64,000 nucleotides of DNA, taken from NCBI RefSeq assembly GCF_002865645.1, contig NW_020194620.1, positions 69,353-133,352 of the forward strand, in the 5' to 3' direction. Under the pieces are notes generated by a model. The model did not search any database and had not been told where the DNA came from. It saw only the letters and a list, made by a program, of their open reading frames with translations. This DNA is from Hyaloscypha bicolor E. Taxonomy: Eukaryota; Ascomycota; Leotiomycetes; Helotiales; Hyaloscyphaceae. Positions within the stretch are counted from its first letter, which is position 1. The number at the start of each line of letters is the position of its first letter. Positions 1,045 through 64,000 of this stretch are shown here, in pieces. Position numbers and translations under genes: made by a program.

Positions 1045-3241
1045 GATACTGACTAGGAAGGAAGGAGAAGAGAAGTGGAGAGCGGGCTGGGTTAAGGTGT
1101 GAGAATTACGGAATATCGGTCGTTGAGCTAGGGGGTAGAGAATGATGAAATAAAGAACGTTGAGCTATCAACTACTTTGTTTTGACTGACATAGTGCCGC
1201 TCAGATCCTGCCCTGTCACACAATCACGTGCAATACTATCTGGGAACAATTAGAAATAGAGCCTCTGTTCTACGCCTCACCCATCGAGAGCTATAAATAC
1301 TCTCAGTTCTCTCTTGATTCATAGCCACTTCAACACTCCCAGTTACAACTTCTACGATCGCCCGAAGCCTTCTACCAGTACATCTTCTCAATATTGTGCC
1401 CGCACACTTCCCACAATGGCTCTTTTTCGTAGCCCTGTCAATCAACTGTAGTATACTCGTACAATACTCTTCCATAGTTATAAGAATATGTTCGTACTGA
1501 AACGCTCTTGCGCCGGTGTTGCCCAGGCCGGACACAACCAAACAACACCGAAAACATTAGGAACAGGATGTGCTTGCACGTCCCTGATACAAGTTAAATT
1601 TTGCCCTATTCGGCAACCGATCAATCAGGCCTAAAATTCCTCATCATACTTGTTGTCATCCCTCTATATTATGGACTCCGCAACTCTCACAATCCTTCAT
1701 TGTGCTTTCAAATCGCCCCATCCAAGGATGACAGCACCACACTCGGAGACTGACTTCGGTGAGTTGTGCGACCTGCTTGCAACGACATTCCGCGAATTTT
1801 TTGCAAAAACTTCAGCAGGTGCTTGATATTTGGAGTCGAAGCTTCAGGCCGCCCAAGGTACGATAAAAATGCACTAAATCTTCTCTTCAATTCAGAAGGC
1901 TCTGGAAAAGATTGATAACCCATGGCTTCCAAATGGAAGGATGGATCAGGCCGTGCAAGCTTATATTAATGGAGGATATAAAGAACGCTACATTGAACAC
2001 ATCTTTTACGAATAGGGAGGGAAAAGTGGACTGCTTGTGCAGCAATTGGGCACCAAAAATCAGAATGCTGTTTTTGCGCAGAATACATGCGCTTCCTTTG
2101 GCATTGAGGGGCTGGCAGGGTAATGTAGACGTGGAGAGATCACTCTCGTTATTTAAGCTTGGATTAATAGCGTCGACAAATTGAGAAGTAACTTTTTTAT
2201 TCCGTCTGCACTATCTCCATGACTGACTTTCCTAGCTGAATTCAATCCAGTGGAAGCGCCCCCTCAACTTGATAGATTCGCTGAGGGTAAGGGGAAGCCC
2301 GAGAAGAGTTGGTCAGGGCAACCAACCTCCTCCTAGTAATAGGGTACGACTTGGTAAACTGTGACAGGTCTTGGTGCTCCGCTAATGGCTAACTAACTAT
2401 CCTGCAAAGAATCCATCTATTCCTCTTATACAAAGCGCAACTCAGCCAAGCAGTACGACCCCGACGAACACAAGAGAAACAGTGATCCACCTTCCCGCAA
2501 CAGCAGAGCCGGGCCCCCGCCCTGCAACTATAGTACTTCTTCACAGCCTTCCTCACTCCGTCCAAGCTTTCCAAACTATCATTCAATTTCTCTTGCTTTG
2601 CATGCGACGCTTATATACTCCGCAGCTTGAGGAAGTCCAAAAGCAGAATGTCGACCATTTCGCACTCAGCCTTGTCAACTCATCACCACTCCGGTCTCCG
2701 ACCTCAGTGAACCTTCTGCGGTTCCGACGCCTTGATTCTGGAAAACTCGGCTCAAGAGTGTGCGAGACGTTGGGGGGCGATATTACAACTTGCATCGCCG
2801 GGGAGGATCTACCAGAACGAGTTACCTGCAACAAGTTGACCACGCCCAAGGCTGCGGCTCCAAACACAGGGAAGGACGCACCGTATTTCCAGTTTCTGTA
2901 AGTAATTATACCCGCTGTACCGGATATTCTATCTGACAATGCTGTAGATTCCTGAGCTCCCTACGAAATGAAAGAGGTTCTGACTGGCAGTCAGTCTTCG
3001 AGCCTCGGAAGCTAATGGTCAGTATAGGATGCACAACAGATCAAGTAAACATTACTTCAAGCACTCTCCTTGCAATTTGCATTAAGCTTGGCGTACATTT
3101 GGATTTTTTAGACGCCGTGTTGAGGCCCAGCATCTGGTCCAAGCAGTCCGGTGGATGTTTCCACACATATAACGATGAAGGCGAAGTCGAGGCTATCAGT
3201 GAGTCGTTTTATCGTCGATGTTTCCTCACTAACCATTCTAG
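1045..3241. other. Mostly non-coding; possible gene remnants
   Basis: No complete gene is visible. The stretch 1896-2015 (plus) follows a plausible acceptor (TTCAATTCAG) and encodes a coding-like exon, KALEKIDNPWLPNGRMDQ and onward to a TAG at 2013, which I cannot assign. Frames at 2482-2901 (plus) and 2583-2939 (minus) overlap each other and resemble no family I know. From 3015 a frame with HTYNDEGEVEAI leads to a GTGAGT...CTAACCATTCTAG intron (3199-3241) and then into the polyketide synthase fragment. Confidence 0.4.
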
Positions 3242-3996
3242 ATGGTTTCTACCATTACTTCAACGAATGGCACCGCATCTACGCAAACCCATCGCAGAGC
3301 AACTACGCAGCGGGCTGTGTCTTCCAAGACACCCTCGCACGCTCCCGCTCCGTCCAGGGCCTCCACGGATCCGTGTCTCTCGACATCGGCTACATGGGGT
3401 CCGTCGGCTACGTGGCCCAGCGCAGCGCAGACAGCCAGGTGATCCGGGCCAACGCCCCCAAGCTGGTGCCCATCGAGACGGACGAGTTCCTCGAGATCCT
3501 CGACCACTACTGCGACCCGGCCCTGCCGCCCCTCGACGAGACGCACAGCCAGCTGCTCATCGGCGCCCGCACCGCCGGGGACTACACGGCGCGCGGCGAG
3601 GAGCCCGTGCCGGCGACGCTGCGGCCGCTCTTCGCGGGCTTCAACAACAACAACTCGCGGCACCACCAGGACACCACCAGACGCGCCGCCCGCGCCGATG
3701 TCGCGGAGGAGGCCGATCCCTCGCTGCTGTTCCAGCAGGCGGGCAGCGCGGAGGAGCGTCGCGCCGTCGTGACGGTAGCCCTGAGAGCCAAGGTGGCGCG
3801 GGCGCTGGGTGTCACCGTGGAGGACATGGATGCGGAGAAGACGTTGGCAGACTACGGCACCGACTCGCTCATGGCTGTCGAGCTACGGAGCTGGATGCGT
3901 AAGGACTTTGGGGCCAACGTTATGGTATTTGATATGATGGGTGGGAAGTCGATTAAGGCTGTGGGTGAATTGGTTGTTGCGAAGGCGGGGGCTTGA
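3242..3996 (+). pseudogene. Highly reducing polyketide synthase, 3' remnant (KR end + ACP)
   Basis: The last about 235 residues of a fungal HR-PKS. Homology starts abruptly near 3286 with NPSQSNYAAGCVFQDTLA, the C-terminal active-site part of a ketoreductase (Tyr and Asn of the YxxxN motif). It continues through VSLDIGYMGSVGYVAQ and an APKLVPIETDEFLEIL linker. It ends with an acyl carrier domain, DYGTDSLMAVELRSW, whose Ser (about codon at 3868) is the phosphopantetheine site. KS, AT, DH, MT, ER and the KR core are absent upstream; instead there is unrelated AT-richer sequence. The coding DNA is clearly GC-richer than its surroundings from 3286. I infer a truncated gene left after deletion or rearrangement. 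It stops at TGA 3994-3996. Confidence 0.8.
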
Positions 3997-35871: not shown

Positions 35872-36062
35872 TATTTCTTTTATAAATATATAAAATAATT
35901 ATTATAAAGAAATTATTATAAGAGGCTATAAAAGATATAAAAAAAGATATAATAAAAGTATTAGAAATAATTATATAAAATAAAAACAAATATATAATAT
36001 AATATAATAAGAAAAACTTCTTATAATAATAGAATTACTTATAATAGTATTATAGTTTAATA

Positions 36063-36263
36063 AAAGCCTTTCTTGGTTTTTATAGAGGTTATATAATGGT
36101 TTTAGCCTCTTAATAATATAATTAATAGCAGCCTTTATAAAATAATAAGGATATACAGGAATTAGCTTGCTTAGGAACGAGTTGGATTGTTCTATTACTG
36201 CCCGTTCCATACCCCTGGAACGAATCGGCAGAAACCGATTGGTCCGGAATTTCGCCAAGCCTG
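36063..36263. mobile_element. End of a hAT-like element (second family member)
   Basis: This about 200-bp stretch aligns with 60239-60430, the right end of the hAT-like element at 58950-60430. Shared blocks are GGTTATA, TTTTAGCCTCTTAAT, ACAGG-ATTAGCT, TGGAACGAATCGGCAGAAAC and GATTGGTCCGGAAT. It stops at exactly the same terminal CGCCAAGCCTG (36253-36263). The inner part is RIP-mutated and the last 100 bp much less so. No partner end was found on the left, so it is truncated or its other end is unrecognisable. It ends 159 bp before the FAD monooxygenase ATG. Confidence 0.75.
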
Positions 36264-48005: not shown

Positions 48006-51000
48006 TTCGATTCCTCATTGGAATTAGAATTGAGATTCTGAAGACCGAGCAGATATTTTGGTGTCAAATAATTCTGGAGAGATAACTGGATTGGAAGTGG
48101 AAAGACGATTTAGTAGAACAGGCTAAGGTTATGAAGATGCTCTTGATTAATGAATTCGAAACGGTAACATCGGCCTTGCGAGTCCTTTCTACACCAGTAT
48201 TGACATGAAGTTCGCGTCCATCGTCACAGTTCCTTACCAAGTCGAATTCTGCAGGTATCATCTTCGTAATGGCATCGAATTGTAAGGATACTAAAAAATT
48301 AGAAGGAGGCTGGGAATGAAGGCGTCTGGAGGTGGGAACGCTGCCCTCTTATACTCAGACGGAGGGTCCGATGCGCAGCCGCGAAGAACTCCAGGATATA
48401 CCCCACAATTACATGAACTTTCATAGGATGCCTTAAGCTCAGAGGCGCTGATTCGTTGGAGAACCGCCAGATGGAGGCTTGCACTGTCGGTTTCTCGATC
48501 AGGAATCCCCTTGTAGGTGACAGTACGAAGCACTCCTTGCATCAAATGCTGTCAGACTTGGCAATGGCCATGGCTGGTGCGTGGACTAGGCAATGCGTCA
48601 CCTGTGCCATGGTGGGCAGCAATTGAGAACAGCCAAGAGGAAGCAGCGTAATCCTCAAATTTGGACGAAAGTCTATTTCTCTGGAGCGCGCTTACTAAAG
48701 TTTATATAGTCTGCAAACCGGCTTGGATTGATTCTTACAAGACGGTATCTGTGGATGGTCCTCTGTAATTTGGTTAGTGGACTTCCAAAGTACCTGAAGA
48801 CTTCTTAACCTATTCGCCGTTACTAGAAGTATCCCTGGCCAACTGCCCAAACCCCCATCCGCCCACTGCCAAAAAATCAATTTTTAATTACATCTTTATT
48901 ATAATTATGAAACCTTTAATATATTAATATAATATAGTATTTTCAATATCCTAATAAATATATATTTATTTTAATCTTATAATACGGCTAGAATTACCTA
49001 TTAAAGTTGAATTTTTATTTTTTTAATATATATTCAATTTAGTAAAAAAATTTAAATATAGTAATATTTATTAAAAATTATAAGATATAGCTATATATTA
49101 AAAGAAAAAAGTTTAATTTTAATAAGTAATTCTAGCTATAATAGATTAAACCCGTAGTTTGAATTCAGTTATATAATTCGGTTATATAATCTTTATTATT
49201 ATAGCTATAGAAATATATAATATATAGCCTATATATATTTAGCTTATATAAGAATAAGACTTTGTTTTTCTTTCTTTAATTATTTCTTCTTATATTAAAA
49301 CTACTAGTTTTCTCAATATAAAAGCCTGGCCTTTAATATTAGAAATAATTCCTTTAATTAAATTATTATATACTAGTAGCTCTCGGAATTCCTAGCTTTT
49401 TATTAATTTTTTTTCTCGAATTAGATAAAATAGCTTTAAATAGCTAATAGTTATTTCTTTAGTAAACTAATATATTCTTGAAATAAATTCAAGTTCTTAA
49501 GGGCCTTATATATATCTTATAAACTCGGCTTAAAATAAGAAAAGATTATTATTATAATTAATTATCTAATATATTTATATTTAATAATTCTCGAAAGAAA
49601 TATCTTATTTAGGCTATATAGCTATAAGTCAAGCTATAATTTAATATAGGAAATAATAAGAAAGTTTTTTTTATTAAATATTATTACTTTTAATTATAAA
49701 AGAAAGCTTTATTATAAGTTATATTATAAATAAAGATTATATATTAATAAGAAATAATTTCGGAATTATATAACTAATTAAATACTATATATAATATATA
49801 AAAAGAAATAATAAATAGCAAATAATAAATAATAGTATTCTAGTAAAAAAATAAGCTTTATATACTATATAAAATATAATTTTTTACTTAAATAAAACGC
49901 GAAATCTTTTATATAAACTTATATAAAAAATAATTATATGTTTTATAACTCCCGTAATATTAAAGATATTAAAAATTAGAGATTAGAAAATTAATTATTA
50001 TAAGATATATAATAATTCTAATTAAAATAATTTATATTAATTAGTATTTTAATAGGCTTTTTATTATTTTATTACTTTTAAATCGAATTAATTATAAAAG
50101 AATTTATTAAGCTATATTAGAAGAAAATAATAATATAACTAGTAACTAATATAAATAATAAATAAAATAAAATAATAGCTTTTATTTATATTTTATTTAT
50201 GTTCTAATTAAAGTATTTATAAATAGTATATATATAATAGGCTAGCCTTATTAAATAAGCCCCGGGTATTTTTATTCTAATATTACCTTATTACCTAATT
50301 AAGTAATAATAGTATTTTAATAAAAAAGCCGAACCTATATTTCTTTATTTAGTAAAAGAACTTGGTTTAGAATAAAAATATAATTAATAACTTATAAGTT
50401 TCTAAATAAAAGCACGCGTTTTTGCTTTAAGCCAGACTTCTTTACTAATATAAATCAGGTTTTATTAAATAAAGAAATGATATTTCTAGAAGTATCTCGA
50501 TTTAAGAACTATATAATAATAGTAATTTTATTAGTAAAAAATCAGAAATCAAGAGATTAGAATCTTTAAAATAAAGAAATTCTTTCTAATTAAAAGAATA
50601 ATTAAAAGAATAATTAAAAGAATAATTAAAAAGCCTTTAAAATATTAGAACTTTCTATAAAAGTATATTAATTTTCTCGATTTTTATTTCTTTTCTATAT
50701 TTTAATTATATATAAAAACTTATTTATACTCGATATATTTGAAAATATCTTAATAAGTTATTTAATATTAATTAAAAAGCTTTATTTATTAATACATTTA
50801 ATTAATAAAAATAAAGGCCTTTTTTCAAGTCTTTTAATCTATTATAAATATTTTTTTAATAAGTAATTAAATTAAAAAAAGAGCTTTATTATTAATTATT
50901 TTAAAAAACATTTATTTAGTTTTATAATTAATAAGTTTTATTATATATTTAATTATTAAATATCTTTTTTATATTTAAAAATACTTATAAAAAGCTTAAT

Positions 51001-51788
51001 TGAAGCTATATTTAAAAAATTTTAAATATTAAAAATAAATTTCTAAAAAATTTTAAATTTTAAAGAACTTTTTCTATTATTTTAAATACTTATATTTTTA
51101 TAAATTAAAAGACATTTCTTGAAATTATAATTTAAGTTTATATATTCTTATAATTATTAAATAATATTTATATTAATATACTTTTAAATATTTTGTAAAT
51201 AAGAATTTTATATTAAAACTTTATTTATTAGTAATAAAGGACTTAAATAATATATATTCTAATATTTATATACTTTTTGTTTTATTAAATGCTTTAAAAT
51301 AATATAATATTAAATATAATTTTACTAAATAAATAATTTATATTAATATATCTTTTTTAATATTACTCGAGATAATACTAGCTTAAATAATATCTTATTA
51401 AAGGCTTTTATAATGTATTATAATAAGGAAAGCATTAAATTTCAAAGAAATAGTTCTTATTTTAAAACCTTGCATTTATAGAAGAAATAGTTTTATTTTC
51501 ATTCTCCTAGAATAATATCTCAGGTAATGTAGAACATCCCATATATAGCATAGGACACGAATGTCACGAAGTCAATACCTAGGTAAATAGGAAGTCAGTA
51601 ATTGCTTCATAGGGATAGTTCCCGAGAAATGGGGTATCAAGAAATTCTCATGCAGTCTTTCTAGAATTGGTTAGGAGCTTAGAATTTGTTCCATTCACCG
51701 GCCAAATGCCAATTTCACTAACAAATGGATATATTGCTATGAATTAGTACCAGACAGGTAGGTAACTTGAAGCGCTCGTAAAGTGGCC
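48006..51788. other. Intergenic flank, then AT-rich RIP-like block
   Basis: 48006-48880 has normal composition and no recognised gene. 48880-51520 is extremely AT-rich with TpA excess and stops in all frames; it has the look of RIP-degraded repeat DNA, but I could not match it to the gypsy copies. 51520-51788 is the 3' flank of the dehydrogenase gene. Confidence 0.5.
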
Positions 51789-53023
51789 TTAGTTCTCATC
51801 CCGCAGATACGTTAAACTATTCATCTTCCTCACCGCATCCATCAATCCTATCACCGCATCCATCAATCCTAGAACCCTCAAACTCTCCCCCAAGGGGCAC
51901 ACATCATTTTCCAACCTCCCAGCCCTCAAATCCTCCGCCACCGCGTCGGCCTCAAAATAAAAGCCCTTCGCTCCCTCCACCCTCTCAACATTAATCCTCT
52001 CCTCCCTCCCGCTAACCTTGACCTCCAACCAACCGGGGCTGCTTGCTGCAATCGGGGCCCCAATGACAATCTCACCCTTCTCTCCTTCAATACGACAGAA
52101 TTCCTTTTTCCCAGGATAGGTATAAGTGCATGTGCAAATTGCTTGACACCCCAAGTCCTTATAATTCAATATTATGGCTGTAGTCTCATCGACGCCGTTG
52201 GTCAAAGACATTGTTGAAGCCATCCAGGGTGGTGGCGAGCCAGCTGCGATGTGGTCGGGATGAGAATCTAGTATCAGGGCTGCCCACGTGAGAGTGTAGA
52301 TTCCTATATCGAGGAGAGCACCGGCACCGAGGGATGGATCTAAGGCGCGGGAAGTTGTTGGGAGAGAAGAGAAGGGCATGTACAGGGAGAAGTCTATGAA
52401 AACTCGGCGTAAGGGGCCGAGGATGCGTTCTTGGTGGAGCAGTCTTTGGAGATGGGCCGCGAGGGGGTTGAAGCGTGTCCAGAGTGCTGGATAAAGACAC
52501 AATTTATTATTTTTCCAATTGTGAGATTTAAGAGGCTTAGTGGTGCTGGAAAATAATTGAACGCACCCTCCATGAGAAATACTCCTTTCTCTTTCGCCGC
52601 AGAAATCAATATCTCTGCATCTCTCGCATTTATCGTCATTGGTTTCTCAACAAGGACATGTTTTCCGCCCTTTATGGCTCCCAGTGCATTCTCCAAGTGG
52701 AAAACATGTGGTGTTCCGACATAGACGATATCAACCTCCGGCTCATTGTAGACATCTTCGTAGGAGGCATAGATAGAGGGATGATGAGATGGGCAGTGCT
52801 TCTCTGCAAAACTGTGGCCCTTCGAGACGCTGGACGATCCGAGCGCCTGGATGACATGGTTTGTTGGTGCTGTAGCCCGAGGGAGAACCAGGTCTGCTAC
52901 GAACCAGGAAGAGATGAGTCCGCACCCTGGAGATGGCGTGTTAGTCCTTTGGATAATAATTGAAAGTATATCAAACTTGCCCACGATTCCCCATCTGAGA
53001 ACTGGAAGCTCTCTTGGTTCCAT
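51789..53023 (-). CDS. Gfo/Idh/MocA oxidoreductase (D-xylose / dihydrodiol dehydrogenase-like)
   Basis: Three exons on the minus strand (53023-52981, 52926-52567, 52486-51789), 366 aa. The first intron uses a GC donor (G|GCAAGT...CCAG); only this gives VLRWGIVGCGLISSWF with an intact Rossmann glycine motif. Then come VIQALGSSSVSKGHSFAEKH, YASYEDVYNEPEVDIVYVGT and the cofactor/catalytic EKP of GGKHVLVEKPMT. After the second intron LMEALWTRFNPL and the beta-sheet substrate domain follow (LGAGALLDIGIYTLTWAALI). Relatives are NADP-dependent D-xylose dehydrogenases and trans-dihydrodiol dehydrogenases. It would oxidise a free sugar in the cytosol. A sugar porter lies next to it on the same strand. 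Confidence 0.9.
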
Positions 53024-53313: not shown

Positions 53314-54949
53314 CTACTCACGCACATGTTCAATCTGGGTTTCCGTCTTCTTTTCCATTACCTGGTGCTCGACAGCCTCCAGAACCTTCTCTGGCATTGC
53401 CACGTGTGCACTAGGCCCATCAAATACTACAGCAATCTCCTCCAGAGTATGACCTCTCGTCTCTGGGTACGAAAAAAAGACAGTCAAACAGATAATGATC
53501 AAGATAACGACATAAACAATGTAGTATTTCCATGCAATAGCGGCCAAGGCAATTGGGTTAATGAAGAGATTGAAGAACAATGCAGCATAGGTTAATGCAT
53601 GTGTAACAACCACACCGCGCGAGCGAAGCTCATATGGCCATATCTCGACAGGGTAAGCAGCGACAAGCGGCGTGAAGGCAATGTCGTAAAAGCCATAGTA
53701 TAGAAAGAGCATGGGAACAACTGCAATACCGACGCTAGCGTGATGCGTTTGTGCGTAGCGGCCAGCAAGGCCAGTCATAATGATGTAACAAACGAGCATC
53801 CCAACCGACGAAGTGATAAATAGGAATCGTCGACCAAGTTTGTCGACGAGCCCTGCGGCAGTGACTGCGGCAATGAGATTCCATAGCTGTAGAAACCCGT
53901 TGATCAGGGTTTGTTGGGTAGGTGATGCGATTCCGACGGTCTTCAGCACTGAGACCAGGTAATATGAGATAATGCCGACTCCGCTCCATTGTGCGAACAC
54001 CCCGAGAGTCACCGAGATGAAGAGACGATGCCGATTGCCTTTTGTTCGGAACATGTCTAGGTAGCTAGCTTCCTTCTTGAATTGTTTTTCGAGCCGCAGG
54101 GTTTCTTCAATCTCCGCCATCTCGAATGCTACCAGCGGGGATGACTCGTCACCTCCAGCGTGGTACGTGGTTAACAAAGCACGAGCTTCTTCGTTGCAGC
54201 CTGCTGCAACGAGCCAGCGTGGGGATTCTGGTGCAAGGATGACGAAGGCAACGATCACCACCGGTATGCCGACTTGAAGGATAGATGGGATTCGCCAGGA
54301 CCAGTCGCTCTTCATGTTTCGCGTCCCGAAAGTTGCCCATGCGGACAGGAGAGAGCCCACATAGTAAAGTGGAAAGAACATGGCAGTGATGATTCCCCGA
54401 TGGGTGGGATAGGCTACCTCACCCACAAGCATAGGTACCGCACCGAAGAAAGCGGAACTTAGACCTACGAAAACGCGGGAGACGATGAACATCTCGCGAT
54501 TGGTGGCGCCGGTCTGAAGTGCTGTTCCGATTGTAATGAGAAGGAAGCCAAGATAGAGACATTTTTTGCGGCCATACTTCTGAGCAACAACGGACATGAG
54601 AGGGAAGGCCGCAAAACCTCCAATGGCTTGAGTGGCGTTTATCAGACCGAGATATGCGCCTTTGGGATGCCGCATAAATGTCTGCCAGGGAGCCAGCGCT
54701 TGCAACCCGTTCATCATAGAGTTGTCGTAACCAATGGTACTGGAGGACAACATGCACATGAACAAGAGGATGTTAAGTTTCAGTAGGTAAGGAGTTTTGT
54801 ACCAAGGCTTGGCATTTGGAGGGAGCACCTAAGGGGTTTGTTAGCGAAGGAAATACTTCGAAAGGAACTCCGCATTGAAAGAGGATTAGAAAACGTACGG
54901 CAGCTAAGTCAGCTCCGACAGCGTGTGTAGCTCCTCGGGTTGCACCCAT
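53314..54949 (-). CDS. MFS sugar transporter (sugar porter family)
   Basis: Two exons on the minus strand (54949-54899, 54828-53314; 70-nt GTACGT...CTTAG intron), 521 aa, starting MGATRGATHAVGADLAAVLP. Twelve hydrophobic segments. Sugar-porter signatures include YDNSMMNGLQ in the first loop, SVVAQKYGRKKCLYLGF (motif A), APESPRWL before the central loop, DKLGRRFLF, and the C-terminal YPETRGHTLEEIAVVFDG. It resembles fungal lactose/hexose permease-like H+ symporters of the plasma membrane. It sits between two Gfo/Idh/MocA genes and near a GH3 gene, so it probably imports the sugar or glycoside that the cluster degrades. Intact. Confidence 0.93.
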
Positions 54950-55630: not shown

Positions 55631-56927
55631 TCAACATCCATCCTGTACGGCATATCCATTGCTCTTGACTTTCGAAGAGTCTAACACCGGGAAACCTGCC
55701 CTCATAATCATGCCAAAAATTTCCAAGTCCTTCTTTGCATCGGCAGCTGTTGTCTTGATCTGTTTTCCCTCTACTATCATCTTGTAGAGCTCCATAATCT
55801 CCAATGTGTAAGGGTCTTCGTATGTCCTTCTGATCATCGATTCTTTGTAAGCACCGTTAACATTCTCGCAAATGTGAAGCGTGGTTGGAAGGCCCTTGAC
55901 ATAAGGTGTATCATATTGTACTCGGACTGTCTTTTTCGCACTGTATATTTCGATGTGTGCGTCAAATCGCGGAACTTGATCCATTCCCGATTCGTACGAC
56001 ACTGCAAAACCAGGGTATTGAAATAAGACACTACAATAAGCATCAGTCAGCTACATGTTGGGAGCATTCCGAAAAAATATGTGGGGTGAAGTGTTTGGAC
56101 TTACTTCCAAAATGGAAAGTTGTAAGAGACTCCCTTGACGGATGTGGGCATTCCGAGTGTTTCTCGCATGGCGGACAAATCGTGACTTCCAAGTCCTCCT
56201 AAGATGCGCCAGAATCGCTTTGATCTATCTGTCTGTTCCACGCCACACTCAACTTCCAGAGCCTGCGTCAGAAGTTCTGTGTTCCGGTTGACGATGTCTT
56301 CGGTGTCTGCAGGTGCGAAATCTGAAAATTTCTTGGGGAAGGTGCCAGATTGATCAACGAAGATATGATTGGGTCCAATGATATCTACTTACTGTCAGTG
56401 TCTGCCGTTGCTCAACAGTATGACGAGAAAGGGATAGTACCCCTAACGCGAGCATAGAGGATCTTTTCGACACTGCCGATCTCTTCAATCGCATCGACAA
56501 ATGCTGCTGCATATCGTCTCATATATCCCACAAAGACTTTCCCACGGGACTTCGATTCTGCTGCGACTATGGCGTCCGCATCCCGGATGGTTATCGAAGC
56601 TGGTTTCTCTAGTAGAACATGTTTGTTGTGTTGTAAGGCAATGATTGCGTGGGCTGCGTGATACTCATTGGAATTGGTGATGAAGACGACGTCGACACTT
56701 GGTGAGGCGCAAAGAGTTGCCACATCACGCGTGGTTTCTGGTTCCTGTCCGGCTACCTTCTTCTTACAATGCTGGAGCGCATCTGAGGACACATCGCAAA
56801 GATAAGTAACTTGAAAGTAATCTGACAGATGGCCGAGTGTAGGAAGGTGAACCGTTTGGCAGACCTCCCCGCATCCGATAATGCCCACGCCTAAGACTTT
56901 CTGCAAAATTGGTTCAGTAGAGCCCAT
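55631..56927 (-). CDS. Gfo/Idh/MocA oxidoreductase (myo-inositol dehydrogenase-like)
   Basis: Three exons on the minus strand (56927-56441, 56384-56105, 56030-55631) give 388 aa with consistent phases. MGSTEPILQKVLGVGIIGCG carries the Rossmann motif; then CQTVHLPTLGHLSDYFQVTY, VDVVFITNSNEYHAAHAIIA and HVLLEKPAS with the conserved EKP. The middle exon has DIIGPNHIFVDQSGTFPKKF and ILGGLGSHDLSAMRETLGMP, the GSHD being the usual catalytic His region. The last exon gives LFQYPGFAVSYESGMDQVPR. I start at the ATG at 56927 because it precedes the Rossmann fold by the normal distance; an upstream in-frame ATG at 57074 exists. It belongs to a different branch from the 51789 gene, so it probably oxidises another sugar or polyol intermediate. 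Confidence 0.9.
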
Positions 56928-57604
56928 TGTAAAGCTGTAGATCCCAAGTTCTGTGTAATTTAGAGACAGACTTTTAGAGTAGTCACCTTTGAGAATTAGA
57001 TGGGCGTGTGAGAACTTCTTTTGCTCAAGAATGGAGAAGTTGGCCGTTTCGATCGATTGCGCTTGGCCGTCCAAAATATATGCGAATATGCGAAAATTGG
57101 AGAGACAGAAATCTAGCTCTATCTAGCGTTCGCTGGTCCAAACATCTGGGACTGCAAGGCACAAAGGGAAGTCCATCTCACGGATAGAGTATCAAGCCGG
57201 TGAGCCCAAAAGCGAAATACACGACTCATCCCAGAACTCTGCGACGATCCCCAATTCGGACGGTATTCTAACTCTAACGAGTGTGATTTGGACGAGGGAG
57301 ACTTACGGGGCTACTTCGGCGCTGGTAGGTCCACGGCCTTGGTATCCCGGCACTCCCCGGCTTGATCCTGATATTGATCTTGATCGTGAATCGTGATCAT
57401 TGTCTCTGCGGGTGGGGTTTGGGGATGCAGGGATGTTTGGGTGCGGGGTTAGGGATTCGGGAGACGAGAGTCGAGGTCGGGGGTCGAGGTCTACGGAGGC
57501 AAATATTACCGGTACTGTACATTAAGTTTATTAGTAGGCCCGTTAACGGCAGCTACCTGACTCGTAACGAAGACCGCGGTCAAAAGTCTCGGTACAGTAC
57601 TGAG
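56928..57604. other. Intergenic, promoter side of second dehydrogenase
   Basis: No gene recognised. A purine/G-rich tract (57400-57500) is repetitive. Ends with the GTACTGAG target copy of the following MITE. Confidence 0.45.
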
Positions 57605-57920
57605 TAGGGATGCGGGAAAATAAAAAACACGGCTGTTTTATATTTTTTTCGTAATAAAAAGCCAGTTTTTTATAATTTCCGATAGTTTTTAATTTGTATG
57701 ACAATCACGTGCATATAATCAATTAGGAAGAAAATAATGAAAACACCAGATTTCGCGGTTTGTTCCGAGAGAAGTTTTTTGTAAGCTAGCCTAATTGGGC
57801 TAGTAAGTCACGCTTTAGTATCACGTGAAAATATAAAATCCTGTTTTTTATACATATAAAACCAATAAAATATGATACAAACCGGTTTTTTATATAAAAA
57901 ACGTTTTTTACGCATCCCTA
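57605..57920. mobile_element. hAT-type MITE, 316 bp
   Basis: Terminal inverted repeats TAGGGATGCG / CGCATCCCTA, flanked by a perfect 8-bp target duplication GTACTGAG (57597-57604 and 57921-57928). An 8-bp duplication is diagnostic of the hAT superfamily. Interior is AT-rich with runs of A and T, two CACGTG-type sites, and no coding capacity. Confidence 0.88.
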
Positions 57921-58127
57921 GTACTGAGTAATACAGGGCATTAGCCCCGTACGCCCCTGTTGAACAGGGAGTAATCGCTGAAACCTGAGGTCTTTATAGG
58001 CTAGTCTGACGAATTTTACGCCGGGGCGAAGTCCATGTAAATACCCGAGATTATGTTTGGAGACTTAGGCTCGAATCCCATAATTATAGGGGCTTCTAGC
58101 ACTAAAGCAGAAACTTTATGGGCATTA

Positions 58128-58378
58128 TCCGTTCCGCTGCTACCAGCTGCGCATTCCGCTTAAATCGGAATATTAAAAACCCGAATCTTCTAACGCATTT
58201 CAATTTATAGATCCTTTATAAAAGCAAAATAAAAATCTGTATAAGAGCTAACTGAAAGGCTATTTATTGGCTAATAAGAGGACCTAAGTCTGATATTATT
58301 ACGTGAAGATTTTAAAAAAAAATTGAAGTTAAAGAGAAAATCGTAAGCGCGGGGCGCACCTGGTAGCAGCGGAACGGA
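58128..58378. mobile_element. MITE, 251 bp, TA target
   Basis: Inverted ends of about 26 bp with one mismatch, beginning TCCGTTCCGCTGCTACCAG and ending CTGGTAGCAGCGGAACGGA. Flanked by TA at 58126-58127 and 58379-58380. Non-coding interior. Points to Tc1/mariner-type mobilisation. Located about 290 bp before the start of the split transcription-factor gene. Confidence 0.8.
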
Positions 58379-58668
58379 TAGCACTTGGCCGCTGTATACC
58401 CTGACTTCTGACCACGGCCTACATAATGAGTACCCACCTTACTATGTGCTCTCCACTCGTCTCCCCTCGTCCTCTTCTCCCCGCCACTCCGCAGGCTCAT
58501 CAACTTCCATGTCCGGCACTCAGCGAAGCCAAAATCTATCATCTTTCTCGCGCGCTACATCCAACCCTAACGCCAGCCCTAGGCAGCCCCGTAGCGCCGA
58601 ACAGGCACAAAGTGCACGCTTTTCGTTGATGGTGTGCAGCGGGCGTTGATCTTCGCAGGCCGGGCGCC

Positions 58669-61600
58669 ATGGACGACAATATTCAATGGCGGATCAACCA
58701 CGAAGATGAGTTGGGTCAGGACTACGTGCACAATGCTAGTCCCCGAGTGACCAATAATAACCCAGACATTGACGAGCGGTCGCAAGTTCGGCCTGGGGGT
58801 CCGAGGACTCTGAAGGATAATAATCTTTCTGAACGAGAGATTTTCGACAAACCAACATCCCTTGGGGCTGTACGCCATAGCACGAAACGACCGAGAACCG
58901 AAACCACGAGGTCGGGGATGTCGTATCCCAGGAAGAGAGCTGTCAGAGCCAGGCTTGGCGATATTCCACCCTGGAACGTTCCACGGAACGTTCCGGCCGG
59001 TATCGACAGGTACTAGGTAATATCGGTAATGGAACGTTCCAATCGTTCCAAAATGGCAGGGGTAGGGCAAAAATGACAGGGGTAGGTTTACCCCACCACT
59101 GCCAGGAGCAGGAGGCTGCACAGGGGGATTATTACCAGGCGCTGGATTATTTAATATATTATTATTATATAGTATAATTATAAGGGATAGAAAGCAATAA
59201 GAGGCTCTTGTATAAGTAGTGGTATTAATAAAGAAACAAGAAGGAAGTTGAGGCGAGATAGGTCCCCCTATACAGCCTCCTGCTCCTGGTCCTGATCCTG
59301 CGAACCCAAACCAGCAGTAAGCCTTTAATCCTTGATCCTATCTATCGTACGATAGCTAATATCTTTAAAGGCTTGTTCCTTTCGTTGCTTTTGGCACTGG
59401 TAGTACTCCTAATCTTGGTACAAACCAGCCTCTTCCTCAAGGCCAATGGATAATCGGTATTGCAGGCCAATAACTTGCTCCCTTTATACGATACCTTACC
59501 CTTTACTATATAATAAAGCTAACTAGAGTATAGTACCATAATAATTAATAATAATAAGCCCTTGCTCTTCCTGGCCAGAATATAATCGTCAATCCAAATC
59601 GCATTGCAATTAGTCAAGTCCTTATATAGTAATAGTCCTATATTAATACTCTTCTCATTTAATAAGAAGGGGTTAATATAACGGCTACTCCTTATACTAT
59701 ATATACTTATACGGGACTCAATAATACCATTTTCCCTGAGTATATCCGGATCGTAGGTATATAGGATAGTTACTATAGCAATTGCAAGTGGCCAGATTAT
59801 ATTACTATAATAGGGATATAAAATACGGAGTAATATAGATAGTAGAATAGGCTTCCACAGCGTGGGATTACAGTATAGGAGAGTAAGACGTGGAATTAGA
59901 GAGTAAAGGTTTGTTAATTTCTAAACTAAGAAGGAAAGAGGGGTAATATATAAGCGGGTTGCGGACTGCGGACGTCCGGAGATCACATGACCGTACCACG
60001 TGACCAATAGGGGTAAAATCCCTACCATACTACAAGCTATCGCTGGGGAGGGAATAATAGTAGTAATAATAGTAATGGAGAGATTAGTACAGGAGGTCGT
60101 AGAGGACATAGTAGACGTGGTGGACGTGGTGGAAGTAGTGGGGGTGGCCGTACGAAGCAAGGACGAATTACACAACGTGGTGTAGTAAGAAAGACTCCTC
60201 GTGGTAGTAGAATTACTCGCAGTAGTACTACGGCTTAATAAAGGCCTTTCTGAGGTTATACGATGGTTTTTAGCCTCTTAATAGCATAATTAATAGAAGT
60301 CTTTGCAAAATAACGAGAATCTACAGGGATTAGCTCGCTTAGGAACGATTGGAACGTTCCATTACCGCCCGTTCCAGACCCCTGGAACGAATCGGCAGAA
60401 ACCGATTGGTCCGGAATATCGCCAAGCCTGGTCAGAGCCTGCCAGCTCTGCCGGACGAGAAAGACGAAATGCAACAATGTACGCCCAATATGTGGGGCAT
60501 GCAGTCAGATTGGAGCACACTGCGTCTTTGAAGACAGCCTGGATCATTCTTCGCAAGTACTACCTTAAGTAGAGCCTAAAGCCACGTGACCGTTCTGACT
60601 TGACCGGCGTAGCTTTGACCCTGCCAGCTTGATAATGCTGGAACGCCTGAATCAGATCATTGACACTCTGAACACCCACCTCGTGTCTGGCCCCGTGAGT
60701 GGGCAGCATCAGCAGGGATCTGATACCTTTCAACCTGTTGTTCAAGAACAAATACAGGATGAGAGCATGTGGAATGGAATATCCCCGGATCCTATAGGGC
60801 ATAACCATACTCCAAATGGGGAAGCAAACCATGGCACGGGAGATCAGAATGCAGCCTCGCAATATTCTACGAATGATCAAGATGGTTTGTCATCATCTAA
60901 GTATTTATATATCCCCGCTTGCCGGACAAGTCCCAGCAAGATCCTCCAATGGCCAATATTCGAAGCACAGTATCCTGCTGATTGCCTCGATGAAAGTTTT
61001 GTTTTATCCTCGGAAGCTTCAGCTGACCAAGGACTGACAGATGGTCCTTGTAGAAGCTCGTGGAAATCAAATGGGGGGCGCTCCTCTCATGGTCGTTTCG
61101 GCGTCCAAGAAGAAGAAATTGAGGGGCTGATTGAAGACTTCCTCGCGGGGGTCCATATTAAAAATCCAATTCTGCATCCAGATTCACTGCGTCTTTATGC
61201 CCGAAATGTAGCAGAGAATGGTCCCCAATGGGATTCGAAATCTTGTTTAGTTGTATGTCCAGAACTCCTTTTATCCAAATGTGTTTAAGCTTTGAATATA
61301 TACCCGATCTCTTTTCTTGGTACTCTCATTTTTCTGCTGCTCGAAATTTGCAAGTCTTCTCATTCTTTCATTCCAGATTGTGATAGAAATTTATTGACAA
61401 TTGTAATAGTATCTTACGTGTTCTCTGGGCTGTCTTGTCCAATCTTTCCAGTCGAAGGATTTCAGACCAGCAGACTCGGCTGACCCCCATGAAACAACCT
61501 CTGTAAAGCAAGACTGCCAAAACTTGCGCCATGCCGAAGCATACTACAATCTTGCTCGGAAGCGCATTGGGCTCCTTCTCCCGTCAATAATGACCGCTCA

Positions 61601-62788
61601 CTGCTACTTCTTCTCGGGGGTCTACCTCATGTATGTTATGCAGCCACTCCAAGCCTGGAATAACTTCTACCAAGCTTCTACGTTGTGCCACATGTGTCTA
61701 CAGTCTCGCAAGCCACTTACAAATGAGCGAACAATTCGGCTGGAGCAATGCCTTTACTGGTCGTGTTTCAAGTCAGAATCGTAAGTCTCGCATCCTTCTA
61801 GAACCTGATCCTCTGCACGCTGAACTATTCTAACAAATGTAGTGAAATGCGAGGAGAGCTTCCACTACCTGTCTCAGTACTCGGCACCATTGAGTACCCT
61901 CATCTTTTTCCAAACCCACCGGAGGTTTCTTCACCGGCAACGGAGGCGAAGCTTGGCCACGGGGGATCCTCAGACGATTCTTCCTCACCTGCTGTCTCAA
62001 CACCATACTCACGTCGACAAGAGTCTCTGGCCTCATACAGCGAAAGTTGGTTCTACTACTTAACCGAGATTGCACTTCGTCGTATTGGAAACCGTATTTT
62101 GAACACCTTTTTCAAAGAAGATTCCTCCTCGTGGTTGAATGTTCCAATTCCTGCCATAATCAATGTCGCAAAGAAGTTTGAAAATGAAATAAAGCAGAGG
62201 TATGAAATGCATCGAGAATTCTGATCATTTCAAGGTAGTTTGGCTGAAGATCTTTGTAGGGTAGACAGATTGCCAGATTCTCTTCGATATGACCAACAAA
62301 ACCTCAGGATCCGTCCCGAAGGAGAACTCCCCCACGTTATCCGGGCGAGAGTTGTTGAGATTCGGTCCTGGATCTGTCGGCCGTTCCTATTCTATGCTGT
62401 ACATCAACCGGCAGATGATCCCAATCAGATATTGATTCGAGGTTTCGTACAAGATTCTCTTGAATTATCCTTTTGTGTCATAGAGAGCGTTGCGCACCGG
62501 CACCGACACCATGGGACTTGGTATGCTCTTCGCAGCGGTAAGCCATATCGTGAGAATTAGATACAAATGGAGAATGTCTAACAATTAATTGTCTTAGGGA
62601 CATCTGCGGCGTTTCGAATCATTGCCGCAGTCAAATGTGGCCATTTAGATGTTCCTCTGGGGTGGAAACAGCTGATTCTCAAACACATCTCGACCCTGAA
62701 GTACTGGGAAATGGAGTCACTGGACTTTGCGAAAGCCAGAGTCATCTTGGAAGAACTACTGACAGAAGTGGGAGTGGGTTCAGCGTAA
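58669..62788 (+). pseudogene. Zn2Cys6 transcription factor gene split by a transposon
   Basis: Exon 1 is cut in two: 58669-58949 and 60439-60552. The 1481 bp between are a hAT-like element plus one copy of its 8-bp target. Later exons are 60613-61252, 61410-61780, 61843-62199, 62260-62537 and 62598-62788. Ignoring the insert, all phases agree and about 743 codons are open. A polar N-terminus with a basic stretch (YPRKRAVRA) leads straight into CQLCRTRKTKCNNVRPICGA, a perfect CX2CX6CX6CX2CX6C zinc cluster ending CSQIGAHC. A linker coil (MLERLNQIIDTLNTH) and a fungal_trans-type regulatory domain follow (SCLV-YLTCSLGCLVQSF, HAEAYYNLARKRIGLLLPS, QCLYWSCFKSES, VDRLPDSLRYD). The intron after the cluster needs a GC donor (TC|GCAAGT, 60553). 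As it stands translation runs into the transposon before the first Cys. It is the likely activator of the flanking sugar cluster. Confidence 0.88.
58950..60430. mobile_element. Non-autonomous hAT-like element inserted in the regulator
   Basis: 1481 bp. Ends CAGGCTTGGCGATATTCC and GGAATATCGCCAAGCCTG are exact inverted copies for 18 bp, flanked by a perfect 8-bp duplication GTCAGAGC (58942-58949 and 60431-60438). Both subterminal regions carry GGAACGTTCC palindromes (about 58972, 58983 and 59031 on the left; about 60350 on the right), probable transposase-binding sites. Inside are only short frames. One near 60040-60240 encodes a Gly/Arg-rich tail (GRRGHSRRGGRGGSSGGG), possibly captured or a remnant. 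No hAT dimerisation domain is visible, so it would need a transposase from elsewhere. It is much less mutated than the 36063-36263 relative. Confidence 0.88.
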
Positions 62789-63066: not shown

Positions 63067-64000
63067 ATGGCCTCTCTCGACGTTGAGGACATTCTGTCGA
63101 AACTGACGACGAGGGAAAAAGTAGAACTTTTATCAGGTCAATGATATTACCTCTGCTCTTGACCACATATCTAAACGGTGTCAGGTGTCGACTTCTGGCA
63201 TACGAAATCATTTCCACAGTATGGAGTGCCATCATTACGATTATCTGATGGACCAAATGGTGTTCGAGGCCAACGGAACTTCTGTGGGACACCCGGGGCA
63301 GTAAGTCAGTATCCTCGTTCCCTGCGACTCTATACTGACCGAGATAAAGGTACTGCCTTGTGGGACGGGCCTTGGGGCACTCTGGGATCAGGACCTGCTC
63401 TTCAGAGCTGGCAAGTTAATGAGCGACGAAGCAAAAGCTAAAGGAGCCCACGTGATCCTTGGTCCATGTATCAACATGCAACGAGGACCGCTAGGTGGTC
63501 GCGGCTTCGAATCGATATCAGAAGATCCAGTTCTCGCTGGTCTTGCAGCTGCCGCTTTGACTTCGGGGTTGCAGAGTGAGGGCGTTGCGGGATGTATTAA
63601 GCATTTTGTTTGTAATGACCAGGAACACCAGCGATCACTCTACGATGCGCAACTCACGCAGCGAGCTTTGCGTGAAATTTATTTGCTTCCTTTCCAGATT
63701 GTTGCAAGGGATGCGAATCCCAAGATGTTCATGACTTCGTATAACAAGGTTAATGGTACGCACGCGAGCGAGAGCAAGGGGCTTTTGCAAGATGTTCTTA
63801 GGGATGAGTGGAAATGGGACGGGGTTATCGTCAGTGACTGGTATGGGCGCCTTCACGAGCTTTTGATATATTCTCCCTTCCCCTGTATCTAACGTAAACA
63901 AAGGTTTGGCACGTACTCGACATCCGAAGCAATCAACACAGGTCTAGACCTAGAAATGCCTGGACCCACACGATTCAGAGGCAACGCATTGGGTCATGCA
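63067..64000 (+). CDS. GH3 beta-glucosidase (5' part; runs off window)
   Basis: Exons 63067-63136, 63185-63300, 63350-63840 and 63904 onward, truncated by the window end. [20 protein letters not shown] is the start of the intracellular-type fungal GH3 enzymes (no signal peptide). Then GVDFWHT and [18 protein letters not shown]; after the second intron, [20 protein letters not shown]. Substrate-site motifs are [32 protein letters not shown] and [10 protein letters not shown]. The nucleophile Asp lies in VIVSDW at about residue 225, its Trp codon split by the third intron. After that intron come [20 protein letters not shown]. It should hydrolyse beta-linked glucosides or xylosides from the non-reducing end. 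No secretion signal suggests the substrate is imported, fitting the sugar porter in the cluster. Intact as far as visible. Confidence 0.93.

What the first reader, a model, noticed from the sequence alone, without database searches (positions are those of the whole stretch)
58669..62788. Transposon caught inside the zinc-cluster codons of a pathway activator
A 1481-bp hAT-like element with exact 18-bp inverted ends and a perfect GTCAGAGC duplication interrupts codon 94, just before the first zinc-binding Cys. The two flanks join in frame, and the remaining five introns keep one open frame to a stop 743 codons from the start. The insertion is the only lesion visible, so it is probably recent and possibly strain-specific or excisable. 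It would silence or rewire the adjacent sugar cluster, a natural knockout or a reversible switch.
Basis: partly seen in the sequence, partly recalled or inferred. Interest (0 to 1): 0.92.

Follow-up and report, generated by a model that had tools for sequence, protein, structure and literature searches.

The report
Stranded transposon breaks sugar-cluster regulator
In this fungal genome a 1,481-base jumping element splits the codon just before the DNA-binding domain of a regulator gene that lies among predicted sugar-use genes; it likely disables the regulator, and because every match we found to the element's own moving enzyme carries stop codons, the damage is probably permanent rather than a switch.

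Summary
Window 58950-60430 is a 1481-bp element with exact 18-bp inverted ends and a perfect GTCAGAGC duplication. It splits codon 94 of a 743-codon Zn2Cys6 regulator, just before the first zinc Cys. Six of six relatives I aligned cross this point without extra residues. The regulator shows no other lesion and no close second copy was found.

The element is a non-autonomous (Ds-like) derivative of a 3572-bp hAT family: parts of the parent, a more diverged inverted piece (~170 bp) and an inserted ~225-bp repeat. A sister copy elsewhere has the same rearrangement and its own duplication, so this form moved as a unit. Five full-length parents have perfect 8-bp duplications but differ from each other almost only by transitions (a RIP signature) and carry 16-51 stops each. 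Of 69 transposase matches in the genome, none is free of stops.

The reversible-switch half is not: no stop-free cognate transposase was found. The regulator's linkage to the sugar transporter recurs in other fungi. A precedent exists by title (Restless in a nitrogen regulator). New member of a known kind. No population or RNA test was possible.

The parts
58669..58949 (+). 5' part of the interrupted Zn2Cys6 regulator: codons 1-93 and two bases of codon 94
   Evidence: the N-terminus aligns with Cadophora P0001 from its Met, 54% identity
58942..58949 (.). target-site duplication GTCAGAGC, left copy
58950..60430 (.). 1481-bp non-autonomous hAT element (Ds-like)
58950..58967 (+). left 18-bp terminal inverted repeat
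58950..59086 (+). element 1-137, matches positions 1-137 of the 3572-bp parent (L069, 96%)
59095..59263 (-). element 146-314, matches the parent in inverted orientation (L069 2632-2460) at only 76% (83% to L073)
59261..59801 (+). element 312-852, matches parent 2630-3170 (92%)
59802..60026 (.). ~225-bp repeat inserted into the element, flanked by TA; repeated elsewhere in the genome
60027..60430 (+). element 1078-1481, matches parent 3168-3572 (95%)
60413..60430 (-). right 18-bp terminal inverted repeat
60431..60438 (.). target-site duplication GTCAGAGC, right copy
60439..62788 (+). 3' part of the regulator: Zn2Cys6 cluster from 60440 and the rest of the gene, five introns
   Evidence: (PF00172, 32.8 bits against a 21 cut-off)
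53314..54949 (-). sugar transporter of the neighbouring cluster (start set by eye from the sequence and P0122)
   Evidence: (PF00083, 260.8 bits, in 53314-54828)
51789..53023 (-). Gfo/Idh/MocA oxidoreductase of the cluster (bounds from two ORFs)
   Evidence: PF01408, PF22725
55631..57074 (-). second Gfo/Idh/MocA oxidoreductase (bounds from two ORFs)
   Evidence: PF01408 in 56412-57074; the ORF 55631-56002 had no hit
63067..64000 (+). glycoside hydrolase family 3 gene, runs off the window
   Evidence: PF00933 in 63419-63892; frames

Best explanation
A 1481-bp non-autonomous hAT element with exact 18-bp inverted ends splits codon 94 of a Zn2Cys6 regulator of a predicted sugar cluster, and it likely acts as a fixed knockout, because the matches to its own transposase found in this genome all carry stop codons. 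Shown by sequence: the element's anatomy, its duplication, its parent family, a sister copy with the same rearrangement, a nearly transition-only pattern among the parents, and an otherwise open regulator. Inferred: a cognate transposase moved the already rearranged and partly RIP-scarred element into the gene; RIP-type mutation then (or meanwhile) destroyed the family's transposases; translation from the native start stops after 115 codons without a zinc cluster, and any protein begun at the next in-frame ATG (604 residues) lacks it too; so the cluster loses its local activator unless another factor covers for it.
For: TIR, TSD and in-frame flanks. Six of six aligned relatives (of 120 listed) run ...RKRA(V/L)xAC... 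across the site without an insert. Sister copy C32:464760-466240 with its own CTAGGTAG duplication, 8 transitions and 0 transversions in 1481. Five 3572-bp parents with perfect, different 8-bp duplications. Parent transposase matches Dimer_Tnp_hAT, 34.2 bits against a 21.4 cut-off, read with X at stops. The five parents differ pairwise by 199-480 transitions and 0-2 transversions. 0 of 69 transposase matches without stops; the five parents carry 16-51. No regulator copy closer than 48% local identity. TpA/ApT is 0.64 and 0.69 in the 250 bp each side against 1.32 in the element. Fifteen of 120 listed regulator rows share organism and longest contig with one of 120 listed transporter rows.
Against: No RNA, population or phenotype data. 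Only 68 of 227 transposase candidates were scored, the assembly may be incomplete, and another hAT lineage might act in trans (PF05699 has matches without stops). The second RIP index, (CpA+TpG)/(ApC+GpT), is 0.85 in the left 250 bp (1.35 in the right), which is on the low side, so some leakage on the left is not excluded. The N-terminal piece found no relative in the protein collection, so no near-identical empty allele was seen. In-frame splice paths through the element exist. That the regulator is an activator is assumed from its class.
Confidence: 0.8

Rival explanations
1. Reversible switch: the element still excises at some rate, so the regulator flips between off and on.
For: Ends and duplication are perfect; a sister copy shows the form was mobile; a fungal hAT, Restless, is called active in a title and has deletion derivatives (PMC3688495, passages).
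Against: 0 of 69 transposase matches are free of stops; five of five 3572-bp parents are broken; Ac/Ds excision leaves a small scar (PMC10512250, passage), and keeping both 8-bp copies would shift the frame.
Confidence: 0.06
2. The element is removed as an intron and the regulator still works with a short extra linker.
For: (donors 58900-59199, acceptors 60300-60469) lists 31 frame-keeping GT/AG pairs without a stop, among them donor 59010 (CAG|GTACTA) with acceptor 60426 or 60435, which keep all six zinc Cys.
Against: No CTNAY branch motif at 60301-60440, whereas each of the five native introns has at least one; the intron would be about 1.4 kb against 60-157 bp for the native five. No RNA was available.
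Confidence: 0.06
3. Old, species-wide pseudogene: the insertion is fixed and the regulator is dispensable.
For: Element and sister copy carry RIP-like differences; a RIP index is low in the left flank; two more repeats lie upstream; population status is untested.
Against: The regulator shows no other lesion and is colinear with a Cadophora relative at 67%; a perfect duplication and 99.46% identity to the sister copy argue against great age.
Confidence: 0.2
4. Rewiring: a promoter in the element drives the downstream exons into a truncated, zinc-free protein with a dominant effect.
For: A 604-residue frame starts at the first in-frame ATG after the element.
Against: The frame open to the zinc cluster inside the element (from 60314) holds no Met; no transcription evidence.
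Confidence: 0.08

Closest known systems
[quoted passage not shown] title seen in the reference list of PMC10992017; paper not held)
   Same: fungal hAT with about 20-bp inverted ends and an 8-bp duplication (PMC10992017, passage), found by title in a pathway-specific regulator
   Different: Restless is autonomous and called active (title); the element here is non-autonomous, its parents are broken, and it was found in an assembly, not by selection
Ds-like Restless deletion derivatives (Windhofer 2002; title in PMC3688495 references, and a passage of that paper)
   Same: internally deleted hAT copies
   Different: here there is also an inverted piece and a nested repeat, and no stop-free parent was found
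Maize Ac/Ds (PMC10512250, passage; rest recalled)
   Same: non-autonomous element dependent on a related transposase, 8-bp duplication
   Different: no Ac-like partner without stops was found here
Repeat-induced point mutation (PMC12543289, PMC4352252; passages)
   Same: C-to-T changes in repeats with CpA preference; signatures reported in some Leotiomycetes
   Different: inferred from copy comparison only; the RIP gene was not identified here

Membership tests
hAT superfamily DNA transposon | 8-bp target-site duplication | tested here: met
   window copy and 6 of 8 two-ended loci exact; L078 is off by one base, L074 has none
hAT superfamily DNA transposon | short terminal inverted repeats shared with an autonomous-sized relative | tested here: met
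   exact 18 bp in the window copy and in five 3572-bp copies
hAT superfamily DNA transposon | parent encodes a hAT transposase with the C-terminal dimerisation region | tested here: met
   L069 read with X at stops: PF05699 34.2 bits against a 21.4 cut-off; the frame is broken by stops
hAT superfamily DNA transposon | mobilised by that transposase | not testable with these tools
   only past movement is inferred, from two sites with different duplications
Ds-like non-autonomous derivative | keeps both ends, lacks the transposase | tested here: met
   nothing matching parent positions 138-2459
MITE | short (a few hundred bp, recalled), high copy number | tested here: not met
   1481 bp, two full copies listed (40 of 155 candidates scored)
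Zn2Cys6 regulator | PF00172 binuclear cluster | tested here: met
   32.8 bits, cut-off 21, residues 1-35 of the downstream piece
Zn2Cys6 regulator | PF04082 middle region (present in some relatives, not required) | tested here: not met
   no PF04082 match at 1e-3; also not listed for the best relative P0001
RIP-affected repeat | copies differ by C-to-T / G-to-A transitions with CpA preference | tested here: met
   199-480 transitions against 0-2 transversions among the five parents; 7 of 8 window/C32 differences at CpA or TpG sites
Intronised element | removed by splicing | tested here: inconclusive
   frame-keeping sites exist, no branch motif, no RNA

The most novel reading that the evidence does not exclude
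Genome defence locks a transposon allele: a RIP-scarred Ds-like hAT moved into a conserved sugar-cluster regulator while a transposase was still alive, and RIP then killed every transposase of its family in the genome, turning a potentially excisable insertion into a one-way loss of the cluster's switch.
Probability: 0.35. Interest if true: 0.55.

Novelty: new member of a known kind. Interest (0 to 1): 0.4.

Why it matters
It is a clean natural knockout candidate for a regulator whose linkage to a sugar transporter recurs across distant fungi, so comparing isolates with and without the insert could show what the regulator controls. It also makes a general idea testable: that mutation of transposons by the host fixes the gene damage they have already done.

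Tried and rejected
Reversible switch: rejected as the main reading after 0 of 69 transposase matches were found without stops. Intron removal: frame-keeping sites exist but no branch motif. A backup copy of the regulator: not found (23 matches, of which 17 lie outside this gene at 27-48% local identity). Empty-site allele in metagenome proteins: no protein in the size range shared three words with the 93-residue N-terminal piece; P0001 itself is too long for that range, so this is uninformative, not negative. Linkage in the fused Fonsecaea model P0044: its transporter part is only 36% identical to the window's, so I use the separate Fonsecaea pair P0013/P0137 instead. C32 copy in a gene: only short ORFs around it, undecided. 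RIP gene: nine C5-methyltransferase matches, not resolved to RID. Literature: (listings; one search returned none) showed no title or abstract start reporting this insertion; they cover open PMC papers only, and the organism's name is unknown to me. My first intron-2 acceptor was wrong and was corrected.

Full report
What is there. The window holds, at 58950-60430, a 1481-bp element with exact 18-bp inverted ends (CAGGCTTGGCGATATTCC) and a perfect 8-bp duplication, GTCAGAGC, at 58942-58949 and 60431-60438. The upstream flank reads 93 codons from an ATG at 58669 plus two bases of codon 94. The downstream flank completes codon 94 and continues with Cys95, the first zinc ligand. With five introns (one GC-AG) the frame stays open to a stop at 62788, giving 743 codons. 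My first acceptor for intron 2 was wrong; the closest relative showed the right one.

The gene. The downstream piece matches the Zn2Cys6 cluster (PF00172, 32.8 bits, cut-off 21) and nothing else in Pfam at 1e-3. Of 367 relatives, the best is from Cadophora sp. MPI-SDFR-AT-0126, 67% identical over the whole query; I infer from this that the fungus lies near the Helotiales (placement of Cadophora recalled). In one search six relatives (of the 120 listed) were aligned; six of six run across the insertion point with no extra residue (P0001...YPRKRAVRACQLCRARKTKCNN...). The GC-AG intron agrees with P0002, P0005 and P0007 (HSSFDPASL) but not with P0001 and P0004, whose models lack those residues. 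P0001 also lacks a further stretch that the window gene and P0002 have; I read that as its gene model, without proof. No near copy of the regulator was found in the 82.0-Mb assembly: the 17 matches outside this gene are 27-48% identical.

The neighbourhood. Leftward lie a sugar transporter (PF00083, 260.8 bits) and two Gfo/Idh/MocA oxidoreductases; rightward a GH3 glycoside hydrolase. Reading the two lists of 120 rows by eye (regulator; transporter), 15 regulator rows share organism and longest contig with a transporter row (one species twice). Two pairs have adjacent or near-adjacent locus tags (Elasticomyces LTR10_007571/007572; Fonsecaea AYO20_09436/09438), and four lie on contigs of 111-224 kb; others share contigs of up to 4 Mb, which is weak evidence. 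No chance expectation was computed. This supports, but does not prove, that the regulator serves the transporter's cluster.

The element's family. The TIR occurs 134 times with up to 3 mismatches against 10 for the reversed control. Of the 20 stretches I chose and fetched, 8 show both ends: five are 3572 bp long with perfect and different 8-bp duplications, one is 3556 bp without a duplication, one is the 1481-bp sister copy on C32 (CTAGGTAG twice), and one is an 840-bp derivative with a duplication off by one base. The parent's broken transposase matches Dimer_Tnp_hAT (34.2 bits, cut-off 21.4). The window element consists of parent 1-137, then a piece matching 2632-2460 inverted, then 2630-3170, a ~225-bp TA-flanked repeat, and 3168-3572. 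The inverted piece is only 76% identical to L069 (83% to L073), against 92-96% for the direct pieces, so it may come from another relative rather than from a simple inversion. The sister copy has exactly this structure, so the rearranged form moved at least once.

RIP and age. The five full-length parents differ pairwise by 199-480 transitions and 0-2 transversions, a signature of repeat-induced point mutation. Window and sister copy differ at 8 sites, all transitions, 7 of them at CpA/TpG versus TpA. Seven of the 8 could be compared with the parents: the polarity is mixed, and at one site each copy stands alone against all five parents in the direction opposite to RIP. In the segment compared, both 1481-bp copies share 34 G-to-A and 9 C-to-T differences from the two least affected parents, against 1 A-to-G, 4 T-to-C and 9 transversions. 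The lineage was therefore probably scarred before its last move. In the flanking gene TpA/ApT is low, 0.64 and 0.69 in the 250 bp on each side against 1.32 in the element. The second index, (CpA+TpG)/(ApC+GpT), is 1.35 on the right but 0.85 on the left, so slight leakage on the left cannot be excluded. On balance this fits a fairly recent insertion, but there is no clock.

Can it move? Each of the five 3572-bp parents carries 16-51 stops in the transposase frame, and 0 of 69 matches to that transposase in the genome is free of stops (68 of 227 candidates scored). Introns could explain a few stops, not this many. Other hAT lineages exist: PF05699 has 112 matches, some without stops. Among the 30 of them fetched, four show a match to the TIR core (up to one mismatch) within 1.5 kb, none at both ends; one of the four is the end of parent L071 itself. 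Excision of the hAT element Ac/Ds leaves a small scar (PMC10512250, passage). I therefore reject the reversible switch as the main reading, while an undetected transposase is not excluded.

Predicted effect. From the native start, translation stops after 115 codons at 59014, before the zinc cluster. The element's open frame into the cluster (from 60314) has no Met, and the first in-frame ATG after the element leaves 604 residues without the cluster. Splicing could rescue: 31 frame-keeping GT/AG pairs exist in the ranges scanned, but no CTNAY branch motif lies at 60301-60440, whereas each of the five native introns has at least one and they are 60-157 bp long. No RNA was available.

Known context. 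A fungal hAT in a pathway-specific regulator has a precedent by title (Kempken and Kuck 2000, seen in the reference list of PMC10992017; paper not held), and deletion derivatives of Restless are described in PMC3688495 (passages). RIP-type signatures in some Leotiomycetes are described in PMC12543289 (passages). This is a new member of a known kind. What stands out is the completeness of the evidence at one locus: insertion, sister copy, dead parents, and an otherwise intact regulator with recurring linkage.

Limits. Strain specificity, transcription and phenotype are untested.

Noticed in passing
window 57605-57920: 316-bp hAT-like miniature element upstream of the regulator: ends TAGGGATGCG, 8-bp duplication GTACTGAG at 57597-57604 and 57921-57928; related copies elsewhere, best 89%.
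   Followed up: partly
window 58126-58380: Second miniature repeat with 37-nt inverted ends (86%), about 290 bp upstream of the start codon; copies elsewhere, best 87%. The region upstream of the regulator thus holds two repeats besides the coding insertion.
   Followed up: partly
window 59802-60026: ~225-bp TA-flanked repeat nested inside the element, listed alone at 20 other places in the genome at 80-92%.
   Followed up: partly
window 48851-51500: AT-rich island, 14.8% GC with RIP-like indices, between gene-bearing stretches.
   Followed up: no
window 36005-36263: Fragment matching the element's right end (81%), with a one-mismatch TIR.
   Followed up: no
genome G000 (C1:2592098-2592460, C4:1200384-1200746, C27:484422-484783, C49:576752-577113): Pairs of ends CAGGCTTGGCGATGATCC (one C4 end differs by one base) 362-363 bp apart in four places: a likely miniature family related by its ends.
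   Followed up: no
P0121, JGI metagenome contig of 18,846 bp: A transporter 98% identical to the window's: a close relative of this fungus is in a public metagenome and could show the empty or occupied site.
   Followed up: no
window 60553-60612: GC-AG intron directly after the zinc cluster; two relatives' gene models (P0001, P0004) lack the residues that follow it, perhaps mis-spliced.
   Followed up: partly
L002 218-505: Short ORF about 1 kb from the sister copy with a faint Zn2Cys6-like stretch (LRCWHKKVRCSGG); resemblance recalled, not tested.
   Followed up: no
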